The notes under the pieces were generated by a model. It had not been told where the DNA came from. It ran no database searches and was given only the letters and a program-made list of their open reading frames with translations. From IMG/VR virus record IMGVR_UViG_3300045999_008996, positions 158,564 through 222,563 of that record: a stretch of DNA of 64,000 nt; one strand, written 5' to 3'. The stretch is from a virus. Of the stretch, positions 19,883 through 56,356 are shown piece by piece; position 1 is the stretch's first letter; each line of letters opens with the position of its first letter. The position numbers and the translations under genes were made by a program.

Positions 19883-19968
19883 TCAAGTTATTCAGGCTCG
19901 CCACCAATTCTTTGACTGGAAATTGGAAACCAGGCGGGAGAGAGTCCCATCCGCACCAGCAAGAATTT

Positions 19969-20532
19969 TTATTGTGCCTTATCTTGCGGGCACCAGGAAG
20001 ACCATTTTTTAGATTTGCTATAAATTCTATTAGCAACTTCCATTTTAGTCATATTATAGTGTTCCATAATAGATTGGATACCAACATACTCTTTACCATC
20101 AACTATAAAAATTTTTTTTGAGGGTTTAACAAAATTTAAAATTCTTTTATTTCTTTCTTCTTCAGAAAGAGAATCCCAATGCTTTTTTACAGAGTGTTTG
20201 ATATTATCTTTATGTTCTTCAGTAATGACTTGTAAAGGTCTAACTTTTTTTAGTTTTTTGCTAATTTTTAGTTTATGTTCTTCACTTAATGGAGTTCTTC
20301 CTTTACTTCCACCACTTTTTCTGTTTAAAAGATTATCTAATATTGATATTAGATATTTTTCGTGTTTTAATGCATCCTCTTCAGAAAGGTTTTTCTTCAA
20401 AAATAATATTTTATCTTTGGTGGGTCTTGGAACATTATGATTTTTATGAAATGCTCTACGACCAGTTCCCTTTCCTATGTAATATGGTGTTCCATTTTCA
20501 CGAAGATATGCATATGTGTAATAGGTCTTCAT
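19969..20532 (-). CDS. GIY-YIG homing endonuclease with NUMOD domains
   Basis: 187 residues. The N-terminal nuclease shows YYTYAYLRENGTPYYIGKG (GIY-YIG motif variant) and a Glu-containing HEKYLI helix. A NUMOD3-like piece (TPLSEEHKLKISKKLK) and a NUMOD1-like helix-turn-helix (GIQSIMEHYNMTKMEVANRI) follow, as in T4 Seg-type freestanding endonucleases. Such genes copy themselves into related phages near their cut site. About 85 bases of unassigned sequence lie between its end and the terminator at 19882. Confidence 0.85.
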   Translation of the reverse strand: MKTYYTYAYLRENGTPYYIGKGTGRRAFHKNHNVPRPTKDKILFLKKNLSEEDALKHEKYLISILDNLLNRKSGGSKGRTPLSEEHKLKISKKLKKVRPLQVITEEHKDNIKHSVKKHWDSLSEEERNKRILNFVKPSKKIFIVDGKEYVGIQSIMEHYNMTKMEVANRIYSKSKKWSSWCPQDKAQ

Positions 20533-21375: not shown

Positions 21376-21376
21376 G

Positions 21377-21450
21377 TGCTCCTTGCGTGGATCGAACACG
21401 CCTCAGGCGAATTATGAGTTCGCTGCATTCACCAGATTGCTAAAGGAGCA
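21377..21450 (-). tRNA. tRNA with CAT anticodon (Met or Ile2)
   Basis: A 7-bp acceptor stem (TGCTCCT), an anticodon arm GCGAA-CTCATAA-TTCGC and a T-arm GCGTG-TTCGATC-CACGC. The CAU anticodon fits elongator Met, or Ile if C34 is modified to lysidine. No encoded CCA. Confidence 0.85.
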
Positions 21451-21454
21451 AGGT

Positions 21455-21541
21455 ACGAGTGGGTGGATTCGAACCACCTCAAAGCCGCTAATCTGGCGGA
21501 AAGGCGTTATAAGTGCCCTCTGACTACCAAGTCTCACTCGC
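21455..21541 (-). tRNA. Class II tRNA with apparent TAT anticodon (Leu/Ser-like body)
   Basis: 87 nt with a long variable arm (CCGC and GCGG around a 7-base loop), a T-arm GGTGG-TTCGAAT-CCACC and an acceptor CGAGTG/CACTCG. The best anticodon arm is GGGCA-CTTATAA-CGCCT, giving UAU, which reads the Ile codon AUA; the A31-C39 closing pair is mismatched and the D-loop is short. Bacterial class II tRNAs are Leu, Ser or Tyr, so UAU is unexpected. It has its own consensus promoter at 21555-21583. Confidence 0.7.
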
Positions 21542-21554
21542 TTGAACCAGGTCT

Positions 21555-21583
21555 ATTATAGAGGACCTGGAACTCTATGTCAA
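21555..21583 (-). promoter_or_regulatory. Consensus sigma-70 promoter for the class II tRNA
   Basis: TTGACA (21583-21578), 17-base spacer, TATAAT (21560-21555), 14 bases before the tRNA. The -35 box overlaps the stop of the Phd-like gene. Confidence 0.9.
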
Positions 21584-21810
21584 GAACCTTCTTCGTGGTC
21601 AGTGTGTATTCGTATCATATCATCATCCACTTTAGATTCTACTGCAAACTTTATAGTTTCGTTATATGGAACAATCACTGCGTTTCTTTCTCCATCAGTA
21701 ATAATAAATGATTCGCCGTTCTCTACTCTTTGTATTAGATTGTCAAAATCTACTTGAAACTCTTGAACTGTAAATTTTTGGAGATCTGAAAGTTCTGGAT
21801 ACATTTTCAT
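21580..21810 (-). CDS. Phd/YefM-like antitoxin-type protein, 76 aa
   Basis: The centre of the protein reads TVQEFQVDFDNLIQRVENGE then SFIITDGERNAVIVPY, which is the Phd/YefM antitoxin pattern (SVREFRxxFDELIERVExGE, then a beta hairpin and an AVLVP strand). Starts at 21810 or 21804; neither has a clear ribosome site. The acidic C-terminal tail would be the toxin-binding part. No toxin gene is next to it: tRNAs flank it on both sides. It may act as a DNA-binding repressor or neutralise a host toxin (inference). Confidence 0.65.
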   Translation of the reverse strand: MKMYPELSDLQKFTVQEFQVDFDNLIQRVENGESFIITDGERNAVIVPYNETIKFAVESKVDDDMIRIHTDHEEGS

Positions 21811-21827
21811 AAAGTGAAGTTTATGAT

Positions 21828-21898
21828 CGGGGTGAGAGGGATCGAACCTCTGTCTTCTTGCTCCCAAAGCAAGCCGTCTACCGCTGACTTACACCCCG
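21828..21898 (-). tRNA. tRNA-Pro (TGG)
   Basis: Acceptor CGGGGTG/CACCCCG, anticodon arm CTTGC-TTTGGGA-GCAAG, T-arm AGAGG-TTCGATC-CCTCT. Lies 23 bases downstream of the promoter at 21921-21949. Confidence 0.93.
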
Positions 21899-22015
21899 TT
21901 ATTTGTTTCTGTGTATAAACATAATACCAGCAAATGGTACGATTGTCAACCCACATCCACAAAGAAAAAGAAAGAAGGGACTTGCTGCTAATGTTTCAAC
22001 AAGATGAAAAATCAT
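21899..22015 (-). CDS. Single-span membrane protein, 38 aa
   Basis: Starts MIFHLVETLAASPFFLFL and stays hydrophobic to residue 34. The ATG overlaps the upstream stop (ATGA). A consensus-like promoter lies inside the gene, and its stop abuts tRNA-Pro. Function unknown. Confidence 0.5.
   Translation of the reverse strand: MIFHLVETLAASPFFLFLCGCGLTIVPFAGIMFIHRNK
21921..21949 (-). promoter_or_regulatory. Sigma-70 promoter for tRNA-Pro and the Phd-like gene
   Basis: TTGACA (21949-21944), 17-base spacer, TATTAT (21926-21921). It is inside the 38-aa gene. Confidence 0.8.
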
Positions 22016-22239
22016 CTTCCCCTCCAGTTCTTGTATTCATAATACATGTATTGGTCGGTTTCGTCAAGCCCCTGTAAAGGAGCATGAACGTCCCAGTGTG
22101 ACCATTCAATACAGAACTGTTTAATATGTATATCATTAACAGCAGTCTTTACTCCATACATTCTAGAAAATGAAGACATTGCAAAATGATATTTTTGTCT
22201 AATGTGCGGTTCCATTTCCCTTATATTCTTTGGAGTCAT
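22012..22239 (-). CDS. Hypothetical protein, 75 aa
   Basis: Soluble, aromatic-rich protein (CIEWSHWDVHAPLQG, then DQYMYYEYKNW). AGGAGG lies 6 bases before the ATG. Overlaps a 39-aa gene upstream and the 38-aa gene downstream. No family recognised. Confidence 0.65.
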   Translation of the reverse strand: MTPKNIREMEPHIRQKYHFAMSSFSRMYGVKTAVNDIHIKQFCIEWSHWDVHAPLQGLDETDQYMYYEYKNWRGR

Positions 22240-22318
22240 AGTATCCTCCTCTTGTTCCGAAATAGAGTGTTGTTAAAACAAACGGAATAGAAATGAAAAT
22301 AAGTGCTTTACCTAACAT
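22199..22318 (-). CDS. Small membrane-anchored protein, 39 aa
   Basis: MLGKALIFISIPFVLTTLYF is a signal anchor, with a polar tail of 19 residues. Its ATG lies inside the last codons of gnd. It overlaps the next gene by 41 bases and holds that gene's ribosome site. Function unknown. Confidence 0.5.
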   Translation of the reverse strand: MLGKALIFISIPFVLTTLYFGTRGGYYDSKEYKGNGTAH

Positions 22319-23330
22319 GATGTCCCCCAAACATATAACGCATTCCGTTTAGGATTTTTGCTCCGAATGATCCGAGATTGCGTGAGTTAAATCTTTCAAA
22401 TAGTGCTGTAGTAATAACAGGAGCGGGAACCCCCAGGTCCACAGCGGCAGAAACAGTCCAACGACCCTCACCACTATCGGATACTCCTCCAGAGAACTGT
22501 TTAAGGCTACCATCCCGGCGTAACACATCAGCAGTAAGATCAAGTAACCAAGACCCAACCACGCTACCGCGACGCCATAACTCAGCAACCTCAGCAACAT
22601 CAATATCATAACAATAGGATTCGGGGTCTGCCATAGGGGCGACTTCTGCATCTCCTTCTCTAACATATTTGGCACCCACATTAGCGTTCTTCAGAATGTT
22701 GAAACCTTCTGCATATGCTTGCATTATTCCATACTCAATACCGTTGTGAACCATCTTCACAAAATGTCCTGCACCTGGACCACCACAATGCAACCAACCA
22801 AACTCAGCAGAAGTTACATCCGAGTCATACTGAGTCCTGGGGGCAGCGTTGATTCCTGGAGCGAGGGCATCAAAAATGCTTGCACAAGTGGCGACCGCAG
22901 TATTTCCGCCACCAACCATAAGACAGTATCCACGATCCAAACCATAAACACCGCCGCTAGTACCACAATCAATATATTGGATACCAAGTTTTGCAAGACG
23001 CTCTGCTCTCTTCCGACTGTCTTTAAAATTGCTATTGCCATGATCAATAATAATATCTCCCTCACCACAATATCGTAGTAACTCATTGATTGTTTCCTCT
23101 ACAGTTTCTGCTGGCACAACCATTTGAAATATTCCTGGATTGCCATTACCTTTTACTACTTGAACAAGGCTTTGTATAGTAGTCGTAACACCATTAACAT
23201 ATCCGTTTTCATATGCTTCTTGAGCCTTTTCATAGTTCCTTCGGTAACCCCAAACCTCAATACCCGCTTTCATCATGCGGCGAGACATTCCTTCACCCAT
23301 TCTTCCCAAACCAATTAATCCTACTTTCAT
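22308..23330 (-). CDS. gnd: 6-phosphogluconate dehydrogenase, decarboxylating
   Basis: 340 residues, the short form of the family. NADP-binding GLIGLGRMGEGMSRRM at the start, the catalytic CGTSGGVYG, GGPGAGHFVKMVHNGIEYG with the key Lys and Asn, and GVSDSGEGRWT near the C-terminus. It makes ribulose 5-phosphate, CO2 and NADPH. Phage copies are thought to push carbon through the pentose phosphate pathway for dNTP synthesis, which fits nrdA/nrdB nearby. The ATG at 23330 follows GGAGG by 5 bases and overlaps the stop of a 31-aa gene. Confidence 0.95.
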   Translation of the reverse strand: MKVGLIGLGRMGEGMSRRMMKAGIEVWGYRRNYEKAQEAYENGYVNGVTTTIQSLVQVVKGNGNPGIFQMVVPAETVEETINELLRYCGEGDIIIDHGNSNFKDSRKRAERLAKLGIQYIDCGTSGGVYGLDRGYCLMVGGGNTAVATCASIFDALAPGINAAPRTQYDSDVTSAEFGWLHCGGPGAGHFVKMVHNGIEYGIMQAYAEGFNILKNANVGAKYVREGDAEVAPMADPESYCYDIDVAEVAELWRRGSVVGSWLLDLTADVLRRDGSLKQFSGGVSDSGEGRWTVSAAVDLGVPAPVITTALFERFNSRNLGSFGAKILNGMRYMFGGHHVR

Positions 23331-23422
23331 AAAACCTCCGGATATGCGTGTGTAAGTCCCCAATGTATAAAAAGTCCAATAGACGAAAAAAGAAGAATTG
23401 TAGATATTATTGTTTTAATCAT
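23327..23422 (-). CDS. Tiny membrane protein, 31 aa, coupled to gnd
   Basis: MIKTIISTILLFSSIGLFIH is one hydrophobic helix. The stop overlaps the gnd start (ATGA) and its start overlaps the 37-aa gene by 8 bases, so ribosomes would pass through all three. It contains the gnd ribosome site. Confidence 0.5.
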   Translation of the reverse strand: MIKTIISTILLFSSIGLFIHWGLTHAYPEVL

Positions 23423-23528
23423 CTTCTTCATCTTCGTAAGCAGATGGTTCTTCAAAGAGTTCTTCCATTTTTTGTTGAAGAACTCTTTTGTTTAGTTTTT
23501 GCAAATCTTCTTCTGTGATTGTTACCAT
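23415..23528 (-). CDS. Small acidic protein, 37 aa
   Basis: Starts MVTITEEDLQKLNKR and ends in a run of Glu and Asp (YEDEEDD). Its ATG shares one base with the preceding stop (TAATG). Helical and highly charged; function unknown. Confidence 0.55.
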   Translation of the reverse strand: MVTITEEDLQKLNKRVLQQKMEELFEEPSAYEDEEDD

Positions 23529-23731
23529 TAGTTTAAAGTAATTTTAAGAAATGGAAGTAACGGGGGAATAACTCCAACTAATCTCAAAAGTCCCTCAGCA
23601 AATAAAGCAAGAACCACCCAACCGACGCACATACTAATGATAGAAGCATTACGGTTGTGTCTTCGGATAGCAGCATCAATCATCTCCTGAACTTCAGAAC
23701 GTGTGATAAATTCTTCTTGTTCGTGCATCAT
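23528..23731 (-). CDS. Membrane protein, 67 aa
   Basis: A polar helix (EEFITRSEVQEMIDAAIRRH) is followed by a transmembrane stretch at about 31-62 (SIISMCVGWVVLALFAEG, then LRLVGVIPPLLPFL). Part of the overlapping small-gene chain that ends with gnd. Confidence 0.6.
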   Translation of the reverse strand: MMHEQEEFITRSEVQEMIDAAIRRHNRNASIISMCVGWVVLALFAEGLLRLVGVIPPLLPFLKITLN

Positions 23732-23877
23732 TTTTCATCGCCAAGAAATTTTGCAAGAGGGTCTCTTCGGGTTTTTACGATTTCAACTGCTCTTTTGTAG
23801 AACATATTATCCATGTTCCCAGAAGATTCAAAAGTTGCTTTGATCTTCACCCAATTATCGTAGGTGTGTTGATCCAT
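23728..23877 (-). CDS. Hypothetical protein, 49 aa
   Basis: Starts MDQHTYDNWVKIKATFE; a short soluble helical protein. First gene after the promoter at 23903-23930. Its stop overlaps the next start. Function unknown. Confidence 0.55.
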   Translation of the reverse strand: MDQHTYDNWVKIKATFESSGNMDNMFYKRAVEIVKTRRDPLAKFLGDEK

Positions 23878-23902
23878 CGGTTCGTCCCCGTGATACTACT
23901 AT

Positions 23903-23930
23903 ATACTAATCACAGGTATTTCGATGTCAA
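23903..23930 (-). promoter_or_regulatory. Sigma-70 promoter for the small-gene/gnd operon
   Basis: TTGACA (23930-23925), 16-base spacer, TAGTAT (23908-23903). Other -10-like hexamers lie just downstream, so the exact -10 is uncertain. Confidence 0.65.
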
Positions 23931-23993
23931 CTTTTTGTGTTCATATCGTAACACTGTTGAAAAAATTATTAAATTTGTAACTATTCTTAAAAC

Positions 23994-24078
23994 GGAAGCG
24001 GTAGGATTTGAACCCACGAACGCTATTAACGTTGGTTGTTTTCAAGACAACTGCCATAAACCACTCGGCCACGCTTCC
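23994..24078 (-). tRNA. tRNA-Ser (TGA)
   Basis: Class II tRNA; acceptor GGAAGCG/CGCTTCC, anticodon arm GTTGT-CTTGAAA-ACAAC, variable arm AACG/CGTT, T-arm GTGGG-TTCAAAT-CCTAC. Confidence 0.93.
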
Positions 24079-24088
24079 AGTAGAAGGT

Positions 24089-24340
24089 TCAACGAACCTC
24101 AAAATCCAATCGTTTTACTTTACGTTGGCGTCTTGCTTCTTGAAAAGCAAGATCTTGCGAAGAAAGAACATTTGATTTTTGTTCTTTCTGGATAGAGTTT
24201 AACATAACAATGCGAGATAAGTCAAGTGCTGATATCTTATCTCCACGAATTGTTGCCATATTAGGACAACCACAGGTCACCGTTTTTGAATGATGTCCTG
24301 TTATTTCCTTATTACAATCTTTGCATCTTATTGAAATCAT
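24089..24340 (-). CDS. Zinc-ribbon-like small protein, 83 aa
   Basis: CKDCNKEITGHHSKTVTCGC at residues 6-25 holds CxxC and CxC pairs that could bind zinc, followed by a long basic helix (FQEARRQRKVKRL). It may bind nucleic acid or act as a small regulator (inference). It lies between tRNA-Ser and the Dps gene. Confidence 0.65.
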   Translation of the reverse strand: MISIRCKDCNKEITGHHSKTVTCGCPNMATIRGDKISALDLSRIVMLNSIQKEQKSNVLSSQDLAFQEARRQRKVKRLDFEVR

Positions 24341-24355
24341 GATTCTTCATCCTAT

Positions 24356-24790
24356 TCATTGCAGGTGTGCTCTTAACTGCCAAACAAACTTACCATGAGA
24401 TTCCATTAAATCTTGAACTAAATTTGCTGTAGCATATGACTTTTGATTTTCAGATTCTTCCGAAATCTCTACCATTAAATCACAAAACTTGGTATTGTTA
24501 TCAAGAAGCTCTTGAAGCATTTCTTTTGCTCCAGTTGAACTTGCTGCCTCTTTGATTTGAGTTACCTCAAGCATTCTAGAAAGAGAACTGAGAGGTTTTA
24601 CATTCAAATAACGCATATGTTCCGAAAGACGATCAATCTCTTCAAACATAGTTTCATACTGACCGCCAAAGAGTTGATGAAGTTGAGTGAAGTCTTCACC
24701 TACAACATTCCAATGAAATGCCCAAGTTTTATGGAATAAAACAAAAAGCGATGACTGTGCATCACTCAAGAGTTTATAAAGTTTTTCCAT
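24356..24790 (-). CDS. Dps-like ferritin-family protein
   Basis: 144 residues from the ATG at 24790; a longer frame runs back through the tRNA-Val gene and is rejected. Dps signatures: FHWNVVGEDFTQLHQLFGG (His of the ferroxidase site) and YETMFEEIDRLSEHMRYL (Asp and Glu ligands). The family stores iron, removes peroxide and can protect DNA. It pairs in theme with the phage peroxiredoxin. Confidence 0.85.
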   Translation of the reverse strand: MEKLYKLLSDAQSSLFVLFHKTWAFHWNVVGEDFTQLHQLFGGQYETMFEEIDRLSEHMRYLNVKPLSSLSRMLEVTQIKEAASSTGAKEMLQELLDNNTKFCDLMVEISEESENQKSYATANLVQDLMESHGKFVWQLRAHLQ

Positions 24791-24819
24791 TATACTCTTT
24801 TTATTTTTATTTATCAAGT

Positions 24820-24891
24820 GGGCAAAGAGGGATTCGAACCCCCGACATCCTCCGTGTAAAGGAGACGCTACTACCGCTGAGCTATTTGCCC
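24820..24891 (-). tRNA. tRNA-Val (TAC)
   Basis: Acceptor GGGCAAA/TTTGCCC, anticodon loop TTTACAC, T-arm GGGGG-TTCGAAT-CCCTC. Confidence 0.93.
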
Positions 24892-24895
24892 TGGC

Positions 24896-24966
24896 TCCAC
24901 AACCTGGATTCGAACCAGGGACCAAGTGATTAACAGTCACCGACTCTACCGCTGAGCTATTGTGGA
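24896..24966 (-). tRNA. tRNA-Asn (GTT)
   Basis: Acceptor TCCACAA/TTGTGGA, anticodon loop CTGTTAA, T-arm CCTGG-TTCGAAT-CCAGG. Confidence 0.93.
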
Positions 24967-24971
24967 ATGAA

Positions 24972-25040
24972 GGAAGTTACTGGACTTACACCAGTTACGA
25001 GGGCATTGTCTGCTTGTCTTGATTCTTTGACTTAACTTCC
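24972..25040 (-). other. tRNA-like structure, possible decayed tRNA
   Basis: 69 nt on the minus strand with a perfect 7-bp acceptor-like stem (GGAAGTT/AACTTCC), a T-arm-like hairpin ACTGG-TGTAAGT-CCAGT directly before the 3' arm, and a 3-bp D-like stem. It has no proper anticodon arm, no T33 and no TTC in the T-loop. It sits in line with true tRNA genes. Confidence 0.5.
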
Positions 25041-25081
25041 TTTGGCGTCTTTCTATGCTATCTGCATAACGACTACCAAGA

Positions 25082-25152
25082 GCGAAAGACGAGATTCGAA
25101 CTCGCAACAACCTGCTTGGAAGGCAGGGACTCTACCGTTGAGTTACTTTCGC
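25082..25152 (-). tRNA. tRNA-Gly (TCC)
   Basis: Acceptor GCGAAAG/CTTTCGC, anticodon arm CCTGC-CTTCCAA-GCAGG, T-arm GCGAG-TTCGAAT-CTCGT. Confidence 0.93.
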
Positions 25153-25161
25153 AATGAGACA

Positions 25162-25190
25162 ATCATAAACTATTTTAGTTTGATTGTCAA
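25162..25190 (-). promoter_or_regulatory. Sigma-70 promoter inside the tRNA array
   Basis: TTGACA (25190-25185), 17-base spacer, TATGAT (25167-25162), 10 bases upstream of tRNA-Gly. Confidence 0.75.
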
Positions 25191-25192
25191 GT

Positions 25193-25273
25193 GTCGATGA
25201 GAGGACTTGAACCTCCACAGATTAATCTACTGGAACCTAAACCCAGCGCGTCTACCAATTCCGCCACATCGAC
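25193..25273 (-). tRNA. tRNA-Leu (TAG)
   Basis: Class II tRNA; acceptor GTCGATG/CATCGAC, anticodon arm CTGGG-TTTAGGT-TCCAG, variable arm, T-arm GGAGG-TTCAAGT-CCTCT. The anticodon UAG reads CUA/CUN. Confidence 0.93.
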
Positions 25274-25337
25274 TTGATGGAGTAAGTATGATATACCTCA
25301 TAAGGATATAACAGTGACTTACCCTCTATCATTTTAT

Positions 25338-25366
25338 ATATTAACAGACTCAAAAGAATCTGTCAA
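25338..25366 (-). promoter_or_regulatory. Sigma-70 promoter inside the tRNA array
   Basis: TTGACA (25366-25361), 17-base spacer, TAATAT (25343-25338), upstream of the leader hairpin and tRNA-Leu. Confidence 0.75.
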
Positions 25367-25368
25367 GC

Positions 25369-25440
25369 GTCCTTTGAGAGATTCGAACTCCCGCACATAG
25401 GTTCGTAGCCTACTGCTCTATTCCACTGAGCTAAAAGGAC
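25369..25440 (-). tRNA. tRNA-Arg (ACG)
   Basis: Acceptor GTCCTTT/AAAGGAC, anticodon loop CTACGAA, T-arm GGGAG-TTCGAAT-CTCTC. Confidence 0.93.
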
Positions 25441-25444
25441 AAGT

Positions 25445-25515
25445 TCTGAGGGTAGGATTCGAACCCACGAATGGCGGGACCAAAACCCGCTGCCTTACCG
25501 CTTGGCGACCTCAGA
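25445..25515 (-). tRNA. tRNA-Gln (TTG)
   Basis: Acceptor TCTGAGG/CCTCAGA, anticodon arm GCGGG-TTTTGGT-CCCGC, T-arm GTGGG-TTCGAAT-CCTAC. Confidence 0.93.
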
Positions 25516-25516
25516 A

Positions 25517-25587
25517 GCCCTCAATTGGATTTGAACCAACGACCTACTCATTACTAGTGAGTTGCTCTACCACTGAGCTATAAGGGC
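25517..25587 (-). tRNA. tRNA-Thr (AGT)
   Basis: Acceptor GCCCTTA/TGAGGGC, anticodon arm ACTCA-CTAGTAA-TGAGT, T-arm GTTGG-TTCAAAT-CCAAT. The A34-containing anticodon AGU is unusual for threonine in bacteria and phages. Confidence 0.9.
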
Positions 25588-25590
25588 GGG

Positions 25591-25660
25591 GTGCCGTGAG
25601 GGAATCGAACCCTCATATAGAGAACCACAATCTCCTGTCTTACCATTAGACTAACGACAC
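25591..25660 (-). tRNA. tRNA-His (GTG)
   Basis: Acceptor GTGTCG/CGGCAC, anticodon arm GGAGA-TTGTGGT-TCTCT, T-arm GAGGG-TTCGATT-CCCTC. No encoded G at position -1 is seen. Confidence 0.9.
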
Positions 25661-25662
25661 AA

Positions 25663-25735
25663 GGCAGTAGATAGATTTGAACTATCGACCATAGGCATAT
25701 GAGACCCGTGCTCTGCCAGACTGAGCTATACTGCC
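25663..25735 (-). tRNA. tRNA with CAT anticodon (Ile2 or Met)
   Basis: Acceptor GGCAGTA/TACTGCC, anticodon loop CTCATAT with a weak stem (two wobble pairs and an outer mismatch), T-arm GATAG-TTCAAAT-CTATC. The body resembles bacterial Ile2 tRNA, which would need lysidine at C34; Met is the alternative. Confidence 0.8.
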
Positions 25736-25738
25736 AAC

Positions 25739-25826
25739 GGAAGTGGTTGGATTCGAACCAACGGATGCCTATAAAGACATCGGCGGATTAGCAATCCACT
25801 GCATTAGACCTCTCTGCCACACTTCC
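25739..25826 (-). tRNA. tRNA-Ser (GCT)
   Basis: Class II tRNA; acceptor GGAAGTG/CACTTCC, anticodon arm GTGGA-TTGCTAA-TCCGC, long variable arm, T-arm GTTGG-TTCGAAT-CCAAC. Confidence 0.93.
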
Positions 25827-25830
25827 AATA

Positions 25831-25901
25831 GGAATGGTGAGATTCGAACTCACGACCACACGATTATCAGTCGTGTACTCTAACCAACTGAGCTACATTC
25901 C
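25831..25901 (-). tRNA. tRNA-Ile (GAT)
   Basis: Acceptor GGAATG/CATTCC with a mismatched seventh pair, anticodon arm ACGA-CTGATAA-TCGT, T-arm GTGAG-TTCGAAT-CTCAC. Confidence 0.92.
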
Positions 25902-25907
25902 TGTGGT

Positions 25908-25978
25908 ATTCCTAACGGGATTCGAACCCGTGCTGCCACCTTGAAAGGGTGGTGACCTAACCGCTAGTCGATAGGAAC
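25908..25978 (-). tRNA. tRNA-Glu (TTC)
   Basis: Acceptor GTTCCTA/TAGGAAT, anticodon arm CCACC-CTTTCAA-GGTGG, T-arm ACGGG-TTCGAAT-CCCGT. Confidence 0.92.
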
Positions 25979-25982
25979 TTAA

Positions 25983-26025
25983 TGCTGACGGCATTCTGGA
26001 TTATCAGCTCCAGCGCAAATCAGCA
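25983..26025 (-). other. Armless tRNA-like remnant, 43 nt
   Basis: A 7-bp outer stem (TGCTGAT with GTCAGCA, one wobble) encloses a perfect 5-bp stem CTGGA/TCCAG whose 8-base loop contains CTGATAA, identical to the anticodon loop of tRNA-Ile (GAT) 80 bases away. No D- or T-arm. It lies exactly between tRNA-Glu and tRNA-Asp. Confidence 0.45.
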
Positions 26026-26027
26026 AC

Positions 26028-26098
26028 GACTCTAACGGGATTTGAACCCGTGATACTACCGTGACAGGGTAGCGTGATAACCGCTTCACTATAGAGTC
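26028..26098 (-). tRNA. tRNA-Asp (GTC)
   Basis: Acceptor GACTCTA/TAGAGTC, anticodon arm CTACC-CTGTCAC-GGTAG, T-arm ACGGG-TTCAAAT-CCCGT. Confidence 0.93.
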
Positions 26099-26103
26099 AA
26101 GGT

Positions 26104-26184
26104 GGGAGGAGCAGGATTCGAACCTGCGAAGGTAGAACCGTCTGATTTACAGTCAGATTCCTTTAGCCACTCGGAAATCCTCCC
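26104..26184 (-). tRNA. tRNA-Tyr (GTA)
   Basis: Class II tRNA; acceptor GGGAGGA/TCCTCCC, anticodon arm TCTGA-CTGTAAA-TCAGA, T-arm GCAGG-TTCGAAT-CCTGC. Confidence 0.93.
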
Positions 26185-26188
26185 AGAT

Positions 26189-26260
26189 GGGTATGGTCGG
26201 GTTCGAACCGACGACTTACAGGTTAAAAGCCCGCTACTCTACCAACTGAGTTACATACCC
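26189..26260 (-). tRNA. tRNA-Lys (TTT)
   Basis: Acceptor GGGTATG/CATACCC, anticodon loop CTTTTAA, T-arm GTCGG-TTCGAAC-CCGAC. Confidence 0.93.
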
Positions 26261-26376
26261 TTAGAATTAAATTGTCAAGGTTCGGGGTGTGGTCTCTCTC
26301 GACCACTTGATTAGAATACCACCTTTTGGACTCTGGGGGGAGATTGGTGGACACTTAGGAAACTGGTCCAAGCAAC
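26261..26376 (-). other. Non-coding structured gap in the tRNA array
   Basis: No gene is seen in these 116 bases. They hold a perfect 6-bp hairpin GTGGTC-GAGAGA-GACCAC and a TTGACA with no convincing -10 at the proper distance. They lie between the terminator at 26377-26410 and tRNA-Lys, so they may be a leader or processing region of the tRNA transcript. Confidence 0.4.
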
Positions 26377-26410
26377 AAAAAAGGGGAGGAAACTTTTGGT
26401 TTCTCTCCCC
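26377..26410 (-). terminator. Rho-independent terminator inside the tRNA array
   Basis: GGGGAGAGAAAC pairs with GTTTCCTCCCC (one bulge) around a short A-rich loop, followed by six T. Ends the 33-aa gene transcript. Confidence 0.85.
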
Positions 26411-26435
26411 TCTATTTGCTTTTATGGATTGCATA

Positions 26436-26537
26436 TTACATATGTCTTTCCATTTCAGCAAACAGGGGATTACCCTCAATATGCCAATCACGGCAATCGA
26501 GAGTACTAATCTGTTTGGTGGTGATTTGGAAAGACAT
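26436..26537 (-). CDS. Tiny protein, 33 aa, within the tRNA array
   Basis: Starts MSFQITTKQISTLDCRDW and ends EMERHM. It has its own late promoter (26559-26566) and its own terminator (26377-26410), which supports a real gene despite its size. Function unknown. Confidence 0.55.
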   Translation of the reverse strand: MSFQITTKQISTLDCRDWHIEGNPLFAEMERHM

Positions 26538-26558
26538 TGTTTTCGACCTAAGTGTTTT

Positions 26559-26566
26559 TATTTATA
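26559..26566 (-). promoter_or_regulatory. T4-type late promoter TATAAATA
   Basis: Exact octamer, 22 bases upstream of the ATG at 26537. Confidence 0.75.
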
Positions 26567-26590
26567 AGACTTTTATTTAAAAAGTCTAAC

Positions 26591-26663
26591 GGGTTAGGAG
26601 GGACTCGAACCCCCGACCAATTCATTAGAAGTGAATTGCTCTATCCATCTGAGCTACTAACCC
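26591..26663 (-). tRNA. tRNA-Arg (TCT)
   Basis: Acceptor GGGTTAG/CTAACCC, anticodon arm ATTCA-CTTCTAA-TGAAT, T-arm GGGGG-TTCGAGT-CCCTC. Confidence 0.93.
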
Positions 26664-26749
26664 AAGAGACCTCTCTGTTTGTGCTTCTATGAGAGGCATG
26701 AGAGGGGTGAGACTTATATGAGGTTTGGACCCTCACTGCTCATATGATT

Positions 26750-39408: not shown

Positions 39409-39410
39409 AT

Positions 39411-39481
39411 GGAGTGTAAGGAAATCGAATCCTTATTGCTGGAATGCAAATCCAGAGTAATAACCGTTATACGAACACCCC
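39411..39481 (-). tRNA. tRNA-Ala (TGC), isolated
   Basis: Acceptor GGGGTGT/ACACTCC, anticodon arm CTGGA-TTTGCAT-TCCAG, T-arm AAGGA-TTCGATT-TCCTT. It lies 13 kb from the main tRNA array and has its own promoter at 39492-39520. Confidence 0.92.
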
Positions 39482-39491
39482 AAGTTTAGAT

Positions 39492-51072: not shown

Positions 51073-51585
51073 TCAAATCCAATCGGGTTTTCTTTCGGGC
51101 ATACGAAGATAGTTATCGGAAACCCAAGGTTTGGATGCGATGTATCTTTTGTATGCTTCAAATGTGTCAATAGTGTCGTCAAACTTCCATTCCTCAGGCA
51201 TAGCACGAGCAAATGGTGTCACCTCTGTAATTTTGCCCTTTGGAAACAAGTAATATGCATCCACAAGAGTTTTATAACAGGAGTGAGTTTTATTATACCG
51301 CAGGTAGTATTCATCAGACAAGTTCAATCCCCATTTGATTAACCAGTAGGCATTATGGATACTTTCCATTGCCCACTTGGTGCAGGGATGATTGCGGAAT
51401 GCTCCTTTCTCGGTCTTGTAGGGGGTTCCATCTGCCTTGGGAAGGGTTCCATACCCATACCCCCACTTCTGCGATGCCACGATAGAGAGCATCTGACAGC
51501 ACTCCAGGGGCATCTTAACGATGTGTTTATCGGGGAGGCACACCGCACTCTCGGCAGGCCAAGGAGAGGTAACAAAGATGTTCAT
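51073..51585 (-). CDS. Pyrimidine-dimer glycosylase-like protein (Pyr_excise type)
   Basis: 170 residues. MNIFVTSPWPAESAVCLPDK then HIVKMPLECCQMLSIVA, HPCTKWAMES and EYYLRYNKTHSCYK match a family of phage and bacterial proteins placed with pyrimidine-dimer DNA glycosylase / endonuclease V. The catalytic residues of T4 endonuclease V are not obvious, so repair activity is not certain. It lies between gp44 and gp45. Confidence 0.55.
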   Translation of the reverse strand: MNIFVTSPWPAESAVCLPDKHIVKMPLECCQMLSIVASQKWGYGYGTLPKADGTPYKTEKGAFRNHPCTKWAMESIHNAYWLIKWGLNLSDEYYLRYNKTHSCYKTLVDAYYLFPKGKITEVTPFARAMPEEWKFDDTIDTFEAYKRYIASKPWVSDNYLRMPERKPDWI

Positions 51586-52250
51586 CAACCAAAAGTAGAA
51601 TCAGGTTCCAGAGCAATATAGTAAGTCACATCAAACCCAGTATTTTTAAAGCGTGACAAAAGTTTAGAAGAAATTACTACCTCATAAGAACCAGGAATAA
51701 TCTTGATGTTCTCCACCTTAAAGTTGAAAGTAAATACTTCATCGGTTTCACCAACAACAACAGAGAAGTCATTAGATGTATCGTTCTTCTTATCACGAAC
51801 AACCAATTTCACCACACCTGCTTCACCAACCACAGACAAGTCAGGAAGTTGATACACAGCAGCAGCTTTAAGGAGTTTATCAAGTTCCTTGGTATCAAGA
51901 ATGAAACAAACATCTTCAGAAGGAAGTGAAATAGATTTGTCCGGAGGGGTAACAATTACATTAGGATCTGCAAAGAAATATTTTGAGCGAGAACGACCTT
52001 CTTTGATTACAACATAACCATCGTTTTGGAAATCAAGTTCAGCGTTCTGATGAAGGTTAAGACCATTCAAGAACTGGTTCAAATCATAGATACCAAAATC
52101 CTTAGGAAGTTCTTCTTCAATTGTTGCTTCTGCCAATATATTTTTCATAACGCTAATTGTCCGCAAAGAACTACCTTCTTTAAACAAGATTGACTGATTA
52201 ATAGAAGAGAAGTTTTTGAGAAGCGTAAGAGTTTTATCAGAGAGTTTCAT
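51585..52250 (-). CDS. 45: Sliding clamp (T4 gp45)
   Basis: 221 residues, near T4 gp45 (228). KLSDKTLTLLKNFSSINQSI at the start and FKNTGFDVTYYIALEPDSTF at the end match the family. It forms a trimeric ring that tethers gp43 and also activates late transcription with gp55 and gp33 in T4. Confidence 0.95.
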   Translation of the reverse strand: MKLSDKTLTLLKNFSSINQSILFKEGSSLRTISVMKNILAEATIEEELPKDFGIYDLNQFLNGLNLHQNAELDFQNDGYVVIKEGRSRSKYFFADPNVIVTPPDKSISLPSEDVCFILDTKELDKLLKAAAVYQLPDLSVVGEAGVVKLVVRDKKNDTSNDFSVVVGETDEVFTFNFKVENIKIIPGSYEVVISSKLLSRFKNTGFDVTYYIALEPDSTFG

Positions 52251-52644: not shown

Positions 52645-52673
52645 ATTATATCAAACAGACTGATATGTGTCAA
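52645..52673 (-). promoter_or_regulatory. Consensus sigma-70 promoter for the gp45-gp44-regA operon
   Basis: TTGACA (52673-52668), 17-base spacer, TATAAT (52650-52645), overlapping the cobS stop. It should start early transcription of the DUF3310-like gene, gp45, gp44, gp62 and regA. Confidence 0.9.
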
Positions 52674-53781
52674 TGGACTCTTCGGTAGGCATTTTGAAAT
52701 CAGCGTCTACCTTGTCATAAAGTTCAAGGAATGCTTGCTTGGTTTCGTCGTCGAAACGATTCACGCACACTTGGATTGCCTTTGCTTTATCTTGGAAGAT
52801 GCTGTAGGCACGGATGATGTGAACCAGACGGCGAGTGCTGATGATCTCCTCAATGCCACCATCGTAGAAGGTCTTACGGATGATGTCTGCCCAGTCCACC
52901 AGGCGCTTGCAGAAGTCACGGTCTTCTACACCAAGGTCCAGAGCGGTGCCTTCCAGAATCTTCTGCTCTGTGCTGGGAGCAGGGTAGGATTGCTCAAAGG
53001 TCACTGGGAAGCGTTCCAGGAATGCCTCGTTCAGCACATTGGTTCCAATGAAGCGTCCGTCATCAGAACCCTTTCCCTTAGTGTTTGCGGTGGCAATCAC
53101 ATTGAAACCAGCGGCAGGTTTCACCCAGCGACCAATCTTTTTCAGAAAGACACCCTTTCCTTCAAGGATAGATTGGAGACACAGAATCTTGTTGGAAGCA
53201 AGGTCAATTTCGTCAAGAAGAAGGATTGCTCCTCGCTCCAGTGCCTCAATGACGGGACCATTGTGCCAAGCAGTGTTGCCATCAACAAGGCGGAAACCAC
53301 CAATCAAATCATCCTCATCAGTTTCAATTGTAATGTTTACACGAATCAGTTCACGCTTAAGTTGAGCACACGCTTGCTCAACAGAAAACGTTTTACCATT
53401 GCCCGACAGACCCGTAATGAACGTAGGATAAAAAAGACTGGACTTGATAATTTTGTAAATATCACTAAAATTACCAAACTTGACGAAGGTATCATCTTTA
53501 TCAGGAATAAGATTTTGCTCTACAGGAGGAACCACAGAAGGTGCTTGGAAAGTACGTTCGATTTCTTCTACTTTTTGCTGTGTTACTTCAAGGTTCCATT
53601 TACCGCGACCAACTTTGAATTGATCAAGTTTTTTAGTTACAGTTTGATAGTTAGCATCGTTCAGATTACACCAGGCACGAATATCGGCACCAGTGATGGT
53701 GTTCCCATACAGGTTCTGGAGAGAAGTGCGGATGTAGTCGGAGGAGAGTGCCATTCGTTTGCTTTGTTTCAACCTAGTCAT
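52651..53781 (-). CDS. cobS: CobS-like AAA+ ATPase
   Basis: 376 residues. A helical N-terminal domain, then an AAA+ core with Walker A TGLSGNGKTFSVEQ, Walker B AILLLDEIDLA, and the NVIATANTKGKGSDDGRF sensor block typical of CobS/MoxR. CobS is the ATPase of the cobalt chelatase for vitamin B12; phage CobS is common in cyanomyoviruses, but a complete chelatase is not encoded here. The upstream zincin/VWA gene is a likely partner. An ATG at 53754 is an alternative start. Confidence 0.9.
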   Translation of the reverse strand: MTRLKQSKRMALSSDYIRTSLQNLYGNTITGADIRAWCNLNDANYQTVTKKLDQFKVGRGKWNLEVTQQKVEEIERTFQAPSVVPPVEQNLIPDKDDTFVKFGNFSDIYKIIKSSLFYPTFITGLSGNGKTFSVEQACAQLKRELIRVNITIETDEDDLIGGFRLVDGNTAWHNGPVIEALERGAILLLDEIDLASNKILCLQSILEGKGVFLKKIGRWVKPAAGFNVIATANTKGKGSDDGRFIGTNVLNEAFLERFPVTFEQSYPAPSTEQKILEGTALDLGVEDRDFCKRLVDWADIIRKTFYDGGIEEIISTRRLVHIIRAYSIFQDKAKAIQVCVNRFDDETKQAFLELYDKVDADFKMPTEESIDTYQSV

Positions 53782-53789
53782 TATAGACC

Positions 53790-53812
53790 AAAAAAGGGTC
53801 CTCCTGGGACCC
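53790..53812 (-). terminator. Rho-independent terminator before cobS
   Basis: GGGTCC and GGACCC pair around a 5-base loop, followed by six T on the minus strand. A TATAAT lies between the T-run and the cobS ATG without a good -35. Confidence 0.75.
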
Positions 53813-53818
53813 CTGTGG

Positions 53819-54004
53819 TCAGTTTGCCAACTGGTTCCTGAGTTCTTTCAGATACTCTTCACTTGCAATGTGACCCGTATAACCTGGATAATATTTTTTT
53901 ACTAGTGTGGGAATACCCATAGCAGTTGTGCTGCTATTGCACTTAATCCATACTTCTTTGGTATCATATTTTACTACGTGCTCAAATGGAAATTTAGTCT
54001 TCAT
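53819..54004 (-). CDS. Hypothetical protein, 61 aa
   Basis: Starts MKTKFPFEHVVKYDTKEVWI; mixed beta/alpha with a C-terminal helix (EEYLKELRNQL). Its start overlaps the stop of the CobT-like gene by four bases, so it is coupled to it. Function unknown. Confidence 0.65.
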   Translation of the reverse strand: MKTKFPFEHVVKYDTKEVWIKCNSSTTAMGIPTLVKKYYPGYTGHIASEEYLKELRNQLAN

Positions 54005-56187
54005 GCTACCAAAGAAATAAATTCTCCTAATACTTTTTTATTTAGTTTTTTGGTTTTAAGAGACTTTACAAATGCGGACTTGATTTGAGACTTGGTTGCA
54101 CAATCAGCAACTTCAAACTCTGTATCCTGAGAAAGTGCAGTTGCAGACATTCCAAAGTATGCATCATAACCAGACTTGGTGATAGTAAAACTCTTTACTT
54201 TCTTCCAATCACTTTGAATTTTTTCGTACTCTTTGTCTAGTTGAGAGTGATACATCTGAACAAATCGACTAAAGTTGCGACTTTCAAGAACACGAATACC
54301 AATAAAGTTCATAGAAGAAAACTTATCCTTCAAGTTCCTAAGAAGAACATCGGTAAACTCGTGATATCCATATCCAATTTGATAGGTAGTTCCAAGTTTA
54401 CGGTCACGAAGAAATGTGCTCATAGGATTAATGTATCCAGTCCCAATAAATGGTTTCTTTTCCCACTGACGTTTGACTTCTTTATGGTGAACAAGTTGAT
54501 TTGCTTCACCATCGGTAAGTACAATACATTGAACTTTTTGCAGTTTGTTTTCCTTCTGAAACTTAGGAAGAATTTGATGAAGAGTGATTAATGCTTCATT
54601 CAAAGGAGTTCCTGAAAGAGCAAGACGATTTGAATACGTGTAAGGAGAACTGTAAGTCCTACCAAAACAATAAGCAAGACGCCAAATGTTAAGCATTTGA
54701 TGTTCAAGAATACTACCTGAAACTTTACTAGTAAGAATATTCATCATAGCAAAAGTTTCATCAACAACTAAAAGTCCTTCTTTCTTTTGATAGTGTGGAG
54801 TGCGGTCAGCAGCAAGATAACGATCATTCTCATAGTCATATTCACCACGCCTCCATTCATTAGTGAACGCATAAACCTCAAAGGGAATGGATACTTTTTT
54901 ACAAAACCAAACAATATTGAAGAGTTGCTTGCAAGTGTCGAGCATCACATCACACATAGAACCACTCCAGTCAAGAACAAATACCAGACCATGATTCTTA
55001 CCATCAGGAATCACAGAGACTTTTTTAAACAAGTCCTCATTATACTTGTAGGTATGAAGACGAGTAGTATCAAGAACTCCTGTACGAGCAGTAGAAGCAC
55101 GAGCATATTGATCTGCTGCCTTGCGGCATTCAAACTCTTTTACAAGATAGTTAACTTCTTTTTGGGCAGAAGTCTTAAACTTCTTGAAATCAATATCAGA
55201 CTCTTTGTAAAGATTTACAGGAATATAATTTTGCATCTCAGCGTGTTCATTATGAATTTTTTGTTGATGTGCAAAGGAATCATCAATATCTTTGTGAACA
55301 TCGGAGTTCTTGCCAATAATAGTGTCAAGATTTACTTGAGGGACTTCAACATAAACATTATCATATCCATCGTTCCCAACAAGATTGCGAATTTTATCTT
55401 CCAAAGATTCTGCAGTGCGAACTTCGGGTTCTTCTTTTTCTTCAGAAGATTTTACAGGAGTTTCATCACCTTGAGCAGTTCCACCATAGGACTCTTCAGA
55501 CTGTTTTTCGGAGGAGTTATCACTTTCACCTTCTTGCTCAGAAGAGGAGTCATTACTCTCCACATAATCGCTTGCAGGAGACTGTGAATTTCCTTGAGTC
55601 TCGTGAGAGTCAAAGTCAGCAACTTTCTGTTGTTGCTCCTTTTCTTTCTTGCAATATTTGTAAAGTTCTTCAGCAGCAATTAGTGCATCTGCAAAACTTT
55701 CACATGCACCAATTAAATTGATAATTTCTTGTTCTTCAGGTTTAAAATCTAGAGTAATGAAATTACCAATCTTGAAGTAAAGGTTTGCACGGTCAGCAAG
55801 GTTGAATTTAGAAATATCCTCATCTTCAAGTTGAAAAAAGTCTTCTTCATTCAGTTCTTTATAACCATTGAAGAAAGTCTTAGCAAGTCCAGCATACTTA
55901 CGCTTCATCAGTTTCTCAATGCGAGCATCCTCAACAACATTCACAAACTGTTGAGGAACCTTTGCAGTCTCGGTCCAATCTTCATCAGGAGTGAAGAGTG
56001 CATGTCCTACTTCATGACCCACCAAAAGGTCATACACAAGTCCACTCGCTTTTTCCCACAAGGGTAGAGTCAGGACACGAGTATGGACGTTAAAACAAGC
56101 AGTAGAGACCTTCTTGTGCTCCACCACAAGATCTTCAGTGGCAAGAAGTTTGGCAAGTTGAGATTTGATTTCGTGAGAGACTGCCAT
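54001..56187 (-). CDS. CobT-like protein with zincin (HExxH) and VWA domains
   Basis: 728 residues from the ATG at 56187. An N-terminal zincin-like HEVGHALFTP (HExxH) at about 57-66; an acidic Ser/Glu-rich linker at about 205-270; then a VWA domain with the MIDAS motif VLDWSGSMCD at about 408-417 and a TDGEANQL block. VWA plus MoxR/CobS ATPase pairs work as chelatases or protein-remodelling machines. The added zincin motif suggests proteolysis. Adjacent to cobS with one small gene between. Confidence 0.8.
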   Translation of the reverse strand: MAVSHEIKSQLAKLLATEDLVVEHKKVSTACFNVHTRVLTLPLWEKASGLVYDLLVGHEVGHALFTPDEDWTETAKVPQQFVNVVEDARIEKLMKRKYAGLAKTFFNGYKELNEEDFFQLEDEDISKFNLADRANLYFKIGNFITLDFKPEEQEIINLIGACESFADALIAAEELYKYCKKEKEQQQKVADFDSHETQGNSQSPASDYVESNDSSSEQEGESDNSSEKQSEESYGGTAQGDETPVKSSEEKEEPEVRTAESLEDKIRNLVGNDGYDNVYVEVPQVNLDTIIGKNSDVHKDIDDSFAHQQKIHNEHAEMQNYIPVNLYKESDIDFKKFKTSAQKEVNYLVKEFECRKAADQYARASTARTGVLDTTRLHTYKYNEDLFKKVSVIPDGKNHGLVFVLDWSGSMCDVMLDTCKQLFNIVWFCKKVSIPFEVYAFTNEWRRGEYDYENDRYLAADRTPHYQKKEGLLVVDETFAMMNILTSKVSGSILEHQMLNIWRLAYCFGRTYSSPYTYSNRLALSGTPLNEALITLHQILPKFQKENKLQKVQCIVLTDGEANQLVHHKEVKRQWEKKPFIGTGYINPMSTFLRDRKLGTTYQIGYGYHEFTDVLLRNLKDKFSSMNFIGIRVLESRNFSRFVQMYHSQLDKEYEKIQSDWKKVKSFTITKSGYDAYFGMSATALSQDTEFEVADCATKSQIKSAFVKSLKTKKLNKKVLGEFISLVA

Positions 56188-56356
56188 TGGATTTGTTTCG
56201 TATGGAACCACTATAAAACGAAAGGTCGCCTTTTGGGCGACCCATGTGACGCTTTTTGAACTGGGCGAGTCGTGCTTTTGCTTGCCTCAGTGCTTGCGGT
56301 TTAAGTTTTCGTTTCTGTTCTTTCTTGGAATGGTGCTTCCAGTTTGGTACTTGCAT
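56135..56356 (-). CDS. Small basic protein, up to 73 aa
   Basis: Starts MQVPNWKHHSKKEQKRKLKP and is strongly basic to about residue 42, suggesting nucleic-acid binding. Its 3' half overlaps the CobT-like start and holds a terminator-like hairpin (GGTCGCC with GGCGACC, then T-rich), so the true end is uncertain. Confidence 0.5.
   Translation of the reverse strand: MQVPNWKHHSKKEQKRKLKPQALRQAKARLAQFKKRHMGRPKGDLSFYSGSIRNKSNGSLSRNQISTCQTSCH

What the first reader, a model, noticed from the sequence alone, without database searches (positions are those of the whole stretch)
52651..56187. CobS ATPase paired with a protein that joins zincin and VWA domains
CobS is usually discussed as a B12 chelatase subunit in cyanophages. 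Here its neighbour has an HExxH zincin motif at the N-terminus and a MIDAS VWA domain at the C-terminus, as in MoxR-VWA machines that remodel or cleave proteins. The pair may be a phage-encoded ATP-dependent protease or remodelling complex instead of, or besides, a cobalt chelatase.
Basis: partly seen in the sequence, partly recalled or inferred. Interest (0 to 1): 0.6.

Follow-up and report, generated by a model that had tools for sequence, protein, structure and literature searches.

The report
Cyanophage AAA+ ring with protease-like partner
A virus of photosynthetic bacteria carries a long-known gene pair, filed under vitamin B12, that looks instead like an ATP-driven ring motor with a partner that has a protease-type zinc site and a metal-dependent grip; related pairs sit beside DNA-replication genes in unrelated phages and in drug-resistance plasmids.

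Summary
On the minus strand, 52651-53781 encodes a CobS-like MoxR-type AAA+ ATPase and 54001-56187 a 728-residue protein with an N-terminal zincin-like domain (HEVGH 58-62, candidate third ligand E86 in EDxR) and a C-terminal VWA domain with a full MIDAS site. In 60 diverse homologues (down to 29% identity) H58, E59, H62, E86, D87, R89 and the MIDAS D/S/S/D are invariant; CobS follows on the same strand in 176 of 178 loci with room. It is not a true CobS (70.5 bits, cut-off 558.6). 151 host-family genomes have no CobS, though 130 have CobN.

The pair is not new: phage records say 'cobS' and 'peptidase', one paper calls it CobST hijacking host CobN, another describes MoxR plus metallopeptidase-VWA in other jumbo phages. 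My evidence reconciles them: the protein is homologous to CobT, but cellular CobT has lost the HExxH that most phage and plasmid versions keep. A same-architecture pair lies beside ssb/bet/exo on IncC plasmids, including in E. coli, which lacks CobN. Best reading: a MoxR-VWA remodelling machine with a probably active metallopeptidase domain, tied to DNA replication/recombination. Substrate and proteolysis are unproven.

The parts
52651..53781 (-). CobS-like MoxR-type AAA+ ATPase, 376 aa (likely true start ATG at 53754, 367 aa)
   Evidence: Pfam AAA_5 1e-17 and CbbQ_C 1.2e-5; phrog_249 6e-138; TIGR01650 CobS only 70.5 of 558.55 bits; PDB sequence matches to midasin, CobS, NorQ, CbbQ
53389..53412 (-). 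Walker A, GLSGNGKT, residues 124-131
   Evidence: G124, G127, G129, K130 invariant from cyanophages to Sinorhizobium CobS
53272..53313 (-). helix-2 insert segment DDLIGGFRLVDGNT of the MoxR type, residues 157-170
   Evidence: pattern found in 165 of 174 CobS homologues; NorQ uses this insert to bind NorD (PMC13036017)
53206..53226 (-). Walker B, ILLLDEI, residues 186-192
   Evidence: D190 and E191 invariant
53819..54004 (-). 61-aa ORF between the two genes, overlapping the zincin-VWA stop by 4 nt; no family match
   Evidence: the same gap holds pcyA in P-SSM4 and three ORFs in P-SSM2
54001..56187 (-). zincin-VWA protein, 728 aa (phrog_459 'peptidase'; CobT-like)
55624..56187 (-). N-terminal zincin-like domain, residues 1-188
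   Evidence: model pLDDT 87.1, pTM 0.83; top PDB neighbours are zincins
56002..56016 (-). HEVGH, candidate zinc ligands and catalytic Glu, residues 58-62
   Evidence: H58, E59, H62 invariant in 60 of 60; HExxH in 64 of 64
55921..55932 (-). EDAR, residues 86-89; E86 is the candidate third zinc ligand on the next helix
   Evidence: E86, D87, R89 invariant; helix 79-97
55420..55623 (-). acidic, low-confidence linker, residues about 189-256
   Evidence: pLDDT under 50 at 190-251
54004..54999 (-). VWA domain, residues 397-728
   Evidence: best PDB neighbours are NorD VWA (Z 15.4) and Mdn1/Rea1 MIDAS (Z 12.5-14.7)
54958..54972 (-). MIDAS motif DWSGS, residues 406-410 (completed by T527 at 54607-54609 and D559 at 54511-54513)
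56223..56243 (-). terminator-like hairpin between gp46 and the zincin-VWA gene
53794..53814 (-). terminator-like hairpin just upstream of CobS

Best explanation
The two genes encode a MoxR-type AAA+ remodelling machine with a probable built-in metallopeptidase, used during phage DNA replication and recombination, not primarily a cobalt chelatase. The CobS-like protein forms an ATP-driven ring (inferred from family). The VWA domain docks on the ring and its MIDAS metal grips an acidic residue of a target protein (inferred from NorQ/NorD). ATP turnover pulls or twists the target, and the N-terminal zincin domain, tethered by an acidic linker, cleaves or clamps it (inferred). Shown here: domain anatomy, invariant zinc-site and MIDAS residues, near-obligate gene pairing, homology of the zincin domain to CobT, and a recurring position beside replication/recombination genes in unrelated mobile elements. 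Not shown: proteolysis, physical interaction, or the substrate.
For: Invariant H58/E59/H62/E86 and MIDAS residues. Zincin-like N-domain model with zincins heading the PDB list. The VWA domain's nearest structures are VWA domains that work with AAA+ partners: NorD, Mdn1, Rea1 fill ranks 1-9, Z 12.5-15.4, above integrin-type VWA at about 11.5. CobS adjacent in 176/178. Score far under the CobS equivalog cut-off. No CobN or CobT Pfam match in its own genome record. Neighbours are gp43, regA, gp62, gp44, gp45, gp46, gp47, gp55, uvsW, uvsY. CobST-like pairs lie beside DnaE/DNA ligase in SSU5, nickie and Rhizobium phages, primase/helicase in ICP2, and ssb/bet/exo on an IncC plasmid, whose VWA protein also has HEAAH, EDCRIE and MIDAS. 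E. coli, whose plasmids carry such proteins, gave no CobN match as a control genome.
Against: No single zincin match is strong (best Z 7.0, Foldseek E 0.23). Some relatives have lost HExxH (Pseudomonas nickie, Stenotrophomonas ANB28, Acinetobacter plasmid), so catalysis is not needed everywhere. Host-family genomes carry CobN in 130 of 151, so a chelatase role is possible in these hosts. Neighbourhood is suggestive only; T4-like gene order is conserved in general, and the SSU5, nickie, Rhizobium and Stenotrophomonas cases are related to each other.
Confidence: 0.55

Rival explanations
1. Viral CobST: the pair acts as the ATPase and VWA subunits of a cobalt chelatase, joining host CobN to raise B12 (or pseudo-B12) output; the HExxH is a relic. 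This is the published reading for tailed viruses (PMC8651126).
For: The N-domain is homologous to CobT through SSU5-type proteins (hhalign 4e-10; SSU5-type hits PF06213 at 2e-37). Host-family genomes have CobN (130/151) but no CobS (0/151). CobS sequence matches solved CobS chains.
Against: HExxH and E86 are invariant in the phages, while two cellular CobT sequences have lost HExxH. The same kind of pair sits in elements of E. coli, which gave no CobN match. Far below the CobS equivalog cut-off. The genes sit in the replication module.
Confidence: 0.2
2. Virion-assembly chaperone-protease: the machine folds and cleaves structural proteins during capsid or tail maturation, as proposed for group 2.2 jumbo phages (PMC7824862).
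For: Same architecture described there; the same paper cites a MoxR-VWA system needed for tail assembly of an archaeal virus.
Against: An IncC conjugative plasmid, which makes no virion, carries the same architecture. The genes lie among replication genes in the window and in most phages read here. No late-promoter-like ATAAATA lies just upstream, although that scan is at chance level over the window.
Confidence: 0.15
3. Non-proteolytic remodeller: a MoxR-VWA chaperone whose zincin fold serves as a metal-holding or docking domain, perhaps for metal insertion as in NorQ/NorD.
For: VWA domain closest to NorD; NorQD inserts iron (PMC13036017); zinc site lost in some relatives that keep the pair.
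Against: The catalytic glutamate E59 is invariant along with the ligands; metal holding alone would not require it.
Confidence: 0.1

Closest known systems
Jumbo-phage group 2.2 MoxR AAA+ / metallopeptidase-vWA pair (PMC7824862)
   Same: MoxR AAA+ gene beside a gene with N-terminal metallopeptidase and vWA domains
   Different: Reported for group 2.2 phages; the window belongs with cyanophages, which that paper puts in group 2.1. Orthology to their example proteins was not tested here.
Viral CobST cluster (PMC8651126); cyanophage core cobS (PMC3037559)
   Same: Same gene pair in cyanophages; homology of the second gene to CobT is supported here
   Different: That paper calls 'peptidase' a mistaken annotation; here the HExxH/ExxR site is invariant in the cyanophages and HExxH is absent from the cellular CobT sequences checked.
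Aerobic cobaltochelatase CobS/CobT (PF06213, PF11775, TIGR01650)
   Same: AAA+ plus VWA with an N-domain sharing the E-x-x-R-(I/V)-E motif
   Different: Window proteins miss the family cut-offs; no CobN in the genome record; zinc motif kept
NorQ/NorD and CbbQ/CbbO (PMC9976466, PMC13036017)
   Same: MoxR ring with helix-2 insert, VWA partner with DxSxS-T-D MIDAS; NorD VWA is the best structural match (Z 15.4)
   Different: NorD N-domain was not compared with a zincin here; the known role is iron insertion
Zincins: ArdC, minigluzincins (abylysin, jannalysin), IrrE/PprI, Wss1
   Same: HExxH helix plus next helix; they head the PDB list for the N-domain
   Different: Z at most 7.0; none is known to me to be fused to a VWA or paired with a MoxR ATPase

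Membership tests
Aerobic cobaltochelatase (CobN-CobS-CobT) | CobS reaches the TIGR01650 equivalog cut-off (558.55 bits) | tested here: not met
   70.5 bits
Aerobic cobaltochelatase (CobN-CobS-CobT) | CobT reaches PF06213 or PF11775 cut-offs | tested here: not met
   Window protein: no CobT hit. Eleven relatives hit PF06213 weakly, best E 0.0067.
Aerobic cobaltochelatase (CobN-CobS-CobT) | CobN available | tested here: inconclusive
   None in the phage record; 130 of 151 genomes of the presumed host family have it
Aerobic cobaltochelatase (CobN-CobS-CobT) | Inserts cobalt into hydrogenobyrinate diamide | not testable with these tools
   needs biochemistry
MoxR AAA+ / VWA pair | AAA+ with Walker A/B, sensor 1, Arg finger, helix-2 insert, CbbQ_C | tested here: met
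MoxR AAA+ / VWA pair | VWA partner with complete MIDAS | tested here: met
   D406, S408, S410, D559 invariant, T527 at least 90%; NorD VWA Z 15.4
MoxR AAA+ / VWA pair | Conserved gene pairing | tested here: met
   176 of 178
MoxR AAA+ / VWA pair | Physical complex | not testable with these tools
   complex prediction and co-purification not available
Gluzincin-type metallopeptidase | HExxH plus downstream Glu ligand, conserved | tested here: met
   H58, E59, H62, E86 invariant
Gluzincin-type metallopeptidase | Zincin fold | tested here: inconclusive
   Confident model; zincins lead the list but Z is at most 7.0 and Foldseek E at least 0.23
Gluzincin-type metallopeptidase | Peptide-bond hydrolysis | not testable with these tools
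   needs assay with E59Q control
Jumbo-phage group 2.2 MoxR / metallopeptidase-vWA | Same gene pairing and domain architecture | tested here: met
   against the description
Jumbo-phage group 2.2 MoxR / metallopeptidase-vWA | Orthology to the published example proteins | not tested
   their sequences were not retrieved

The most novel reading that the evidence does not exclude
A zincin-VWA plus MoxR machine is a shared mobile-element device for ATP-driven protein cleavage at DNA replication/recombination sites, present from cyanophages to IncC plasmids, and the CobT subunit of vitamin B12 cobaltochelatase descends from it by loss of the protease site.
Probability: 0.3. Interest if true: 0.75.

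Novelty: new member of a known kind. Interest (0 to 1): 0.45.

Why it matters
cobS is a core gene of marine T4-like cyanophages, is used as a community marker, and is routinely counted as a B12 auxiliary metabolic gene (PMC3037559, PMC9983427). If the pair is a remodelling protease, that ecological reading is wrong for a very abundant virus group. It would also explain why hosts without CobS have phages that nearly all carry it, and would link CobT to an ancestral metalloprotease. The claim is testable with a single active-site mutant.

Tried and rejected
Pfam on the window zincin-VWA gives no meaningful hit. Sequence searches of the PDB with the protein, the full alignment and the N-domain alignment give only chance or acidic-linker matches; the weak CobT match lies in the linker and is not used. 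Direct profile comparison of the cyanophage N-domain with cellular CobT alone is weak (E 0.026, against 0.27-0.69 for shuffled or reversed controls), so homology rests on the SSU5-type bridge. CobT chains did not appear in the fold searches; this is not evidence against a shared fold. PADLOC: no defence-system match. A search for the zincin-VWA in 151 host-family genomes found none, but without a positive control, so it is not used. A late-promoter-like motif scan was at chance level. Asking the viral collection with the Ochrobactrum protein gave nothing. Whole-protein fold search was filled by VWA hits, so the N-domain was folded and searched alone. Tree: several long branches meet, so only the statement that HExxH-less proteins need at least two changes is used.
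Full report
The place. The window is the end of a 222,563-base virus record. Its genes are those of a T4-like cyanophage: gp43 polymerase, regA, gp62, gp44, gp45, gp46, gp47, gp55, UvsW, UvsY, with psbA/psbD-type genes just outside the window. The closest annotated relatives of the finding's second gene are in Synechococcus and Prochlorococcus phages.

The observation. The first is a MoxR-type AAA+ ATPase (AAA_5, CbbQ_C) of the phage family annotated 'porphyrin biosynthesis'. The second belongs end to end to the phage family annotated 'peptidase'. It carries HEVGH at 58-62 and a MIDAS motif at 406-410 completed by T527 and D559. In 60 homologues down to 29% identity, H58, E59, H62, E86, D87, R89 and the MIDAS residues D406, S408, S410 and D559 are invariant. 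HExxH is present in 64 of 64 non-redundant viral-contig homologues. The AAA+ gene follows on the same strand in 176 of 178 loci, at a median gap of 315 bases. What fills the gap varies: a 61-aa ORF here, pcyA in P-SSM4, three ORFs in P-SSM2.

The N-terminal domain. Folded alone with 53 sequences it gives a confident model (pLDDT 87.1, pTM 0.83): three strands, the HExxH helix 49-65, then helix 79-97 carrying E86. The PDB structures nearest to it are headed by zincins: ArdC (Z 7.0), abylysin (6.1), jannalysin (5.8), selecase, IrrE/PprI, BlaR1 and Wss1 (Foldseek order). Each match alone is modest (no Z of 8, no Foldseek E under 0.2). The case for a zincin rests on the agreement of the list with the invariant motif.

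The VWA domain. The nine best structural neighbours are VWA domains that work with AAA+ motors: NorD (Z up to 15.4), Mdn1 and Rea1 (12.5 to 14.7); other VWA domains follow at 11.9 and below. Published NorQ/NorD work shows the VWA 'finger' in the pore of the MoxR ring, contacts to the helix-2 insert, and a role for MIDAS in holding the target (PMC13036017; PMC9976466). The window ATPase has that insert (DDLIGGFRLVDGNT) and the usual AAA+ motifs. The hairpins at 567-603 of the model, after D559, are a candidate finger; that is inference.

Relation to CobT. Two published readings conflict. One says the cyanophage 'peptidase' is a misannotated CobT that recruits host CobN (PMC8651126). Another describes a MoxR ATPase beside a metallopeptidase-vWA protein in group 2.2 jumbo phages (PMC7824862) and places cyanophages in group 2.1. 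Both are partly right. The cyanophage N-domain profile matches that of SSU5-type phage and plasmid proteins (hhalign 4e-10). SSU5-type proteins match the CobT family PF06213 (2e-37) and still carry HExxH. Cellular CobT from Sinorhizobium and the CobT chain in PDB 9uka keep the E-x-A-R-V-E motif but have DSMAL where HExxH stands. In a tree of 21 proteins HExxH is in both main halves and its absence needs at least two changes; the simplest reading is loss in CobT and separately in a phage/plasmid group. The root is unknown and several branches are long, so this is an inference. The direct comparison of cyanophage and cellular CobT N-domains is weak (E 0.026).

Is it a cobalt chelatase? The window ATPase scores 70.5 bits against a CobS cut-off of 558.55. 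Its genome record has no CobN or CobT match. In 151 genomes of the family of Synechococcus sp. RCC307 (the presumed host family), CobS is found in none, while CobN passes its cut-off in 130. So the hosts could lend a CobN, and the chelatase reading is not excluded. Against it as the general role: an IncC plasmid has a CobS-like ATPase (phrog_249, 3e-47) and, a few genes on, a 598-aa protein with HEAAH, NVLEDCRIE and a MIDAS motif. Matches to that protein occur in 1,431 plasmid records, 347 of them from Escherichia. E. coli gave no CobN match as a control genome.

Neighbourhood. CobST-like pairs lie among replication or recombination genes in unrelated settings: the T4-like core here, DnaE and DNA ligase in SSU5, nickie and Rhizobium phages, primase and helicase in ICP2, and ssb, bet and exonuclease on the IncC plasmid. 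The Gordonia phage is unclear. Conjugative plasmids make no virions, which weakens a virion-assembly role as the common function. This pattern is suggestive only.

Verdict. The mechanism type, a MoxR AAA+ ring driving a VWA partner, is well supported. A working protease domain is likely but unproven; I put it at about 0.6-0.65. The substrate is unknown; replication or recombination complexes are my best guess. The pair and its architecture are already in the literature, so the finding is a member of a known kind. What is added is the reconciliation of the two published readings, the host CobS/CobN counts, and the IncC parallel.

Noticed in passing
L351:1366-2334 and L351:7563-9359 (IncC plasmid pNDM-US-2): A CobS-like ATPase and a zincin-VWA protein (HEAAH, NVLEDCRIE, MIDAS) flank ssb, bet, exonuclease and DUF3150; close copies of the VWA protein are in several hundred plasmid records.
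   Followed up: partly
52645-52673, minus strand: A perfect 12-of-12 sigma-70 consensus promoter with TG before the second hexamer, in the end of CobS, pointing at the DUF3310/gp45 genes.
   Followed up: no
53754-53786, minus strand: TATAAT overlaps the first CobS ATG right after a terminator-like hairpin; CobS may be a separate transcript starting translation at 53754.
   Followed up: partly
26669-26705, minus strand: Rfam match to abiF RNA (41.3 bits, gathering 37) beside the tRNA cluster.
   Followed up: no
19890-19995, minus strand: Rfam match to the wcaG RNA element (83.1 bits).
   Followed up: no
21376-26664 and 39409-39482, minus strand: Twenty tRNA genes, nineteen in one region plus a lone tRNA-Ala.
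   Followed up: no
L171, L172, L089 (nickie, ANB28, Acinetobacter plasmid): CobT-like partners that keep the VWA and the CobS neighbour but have lost HExxH.
   Followed up: partly
L090:3941-5682 (Staphylococcus phage 812): A CobS-like ATPase whose neighbouring ORFs show no HExxH motif and no recognisable VWA partner.
   Followed up: no
51073-51588, minus strand: Pyrimidine dimer DNA glycosylase family gene (Pfam 4.8e-15) between gp44 and gp45.
   Followed up: no
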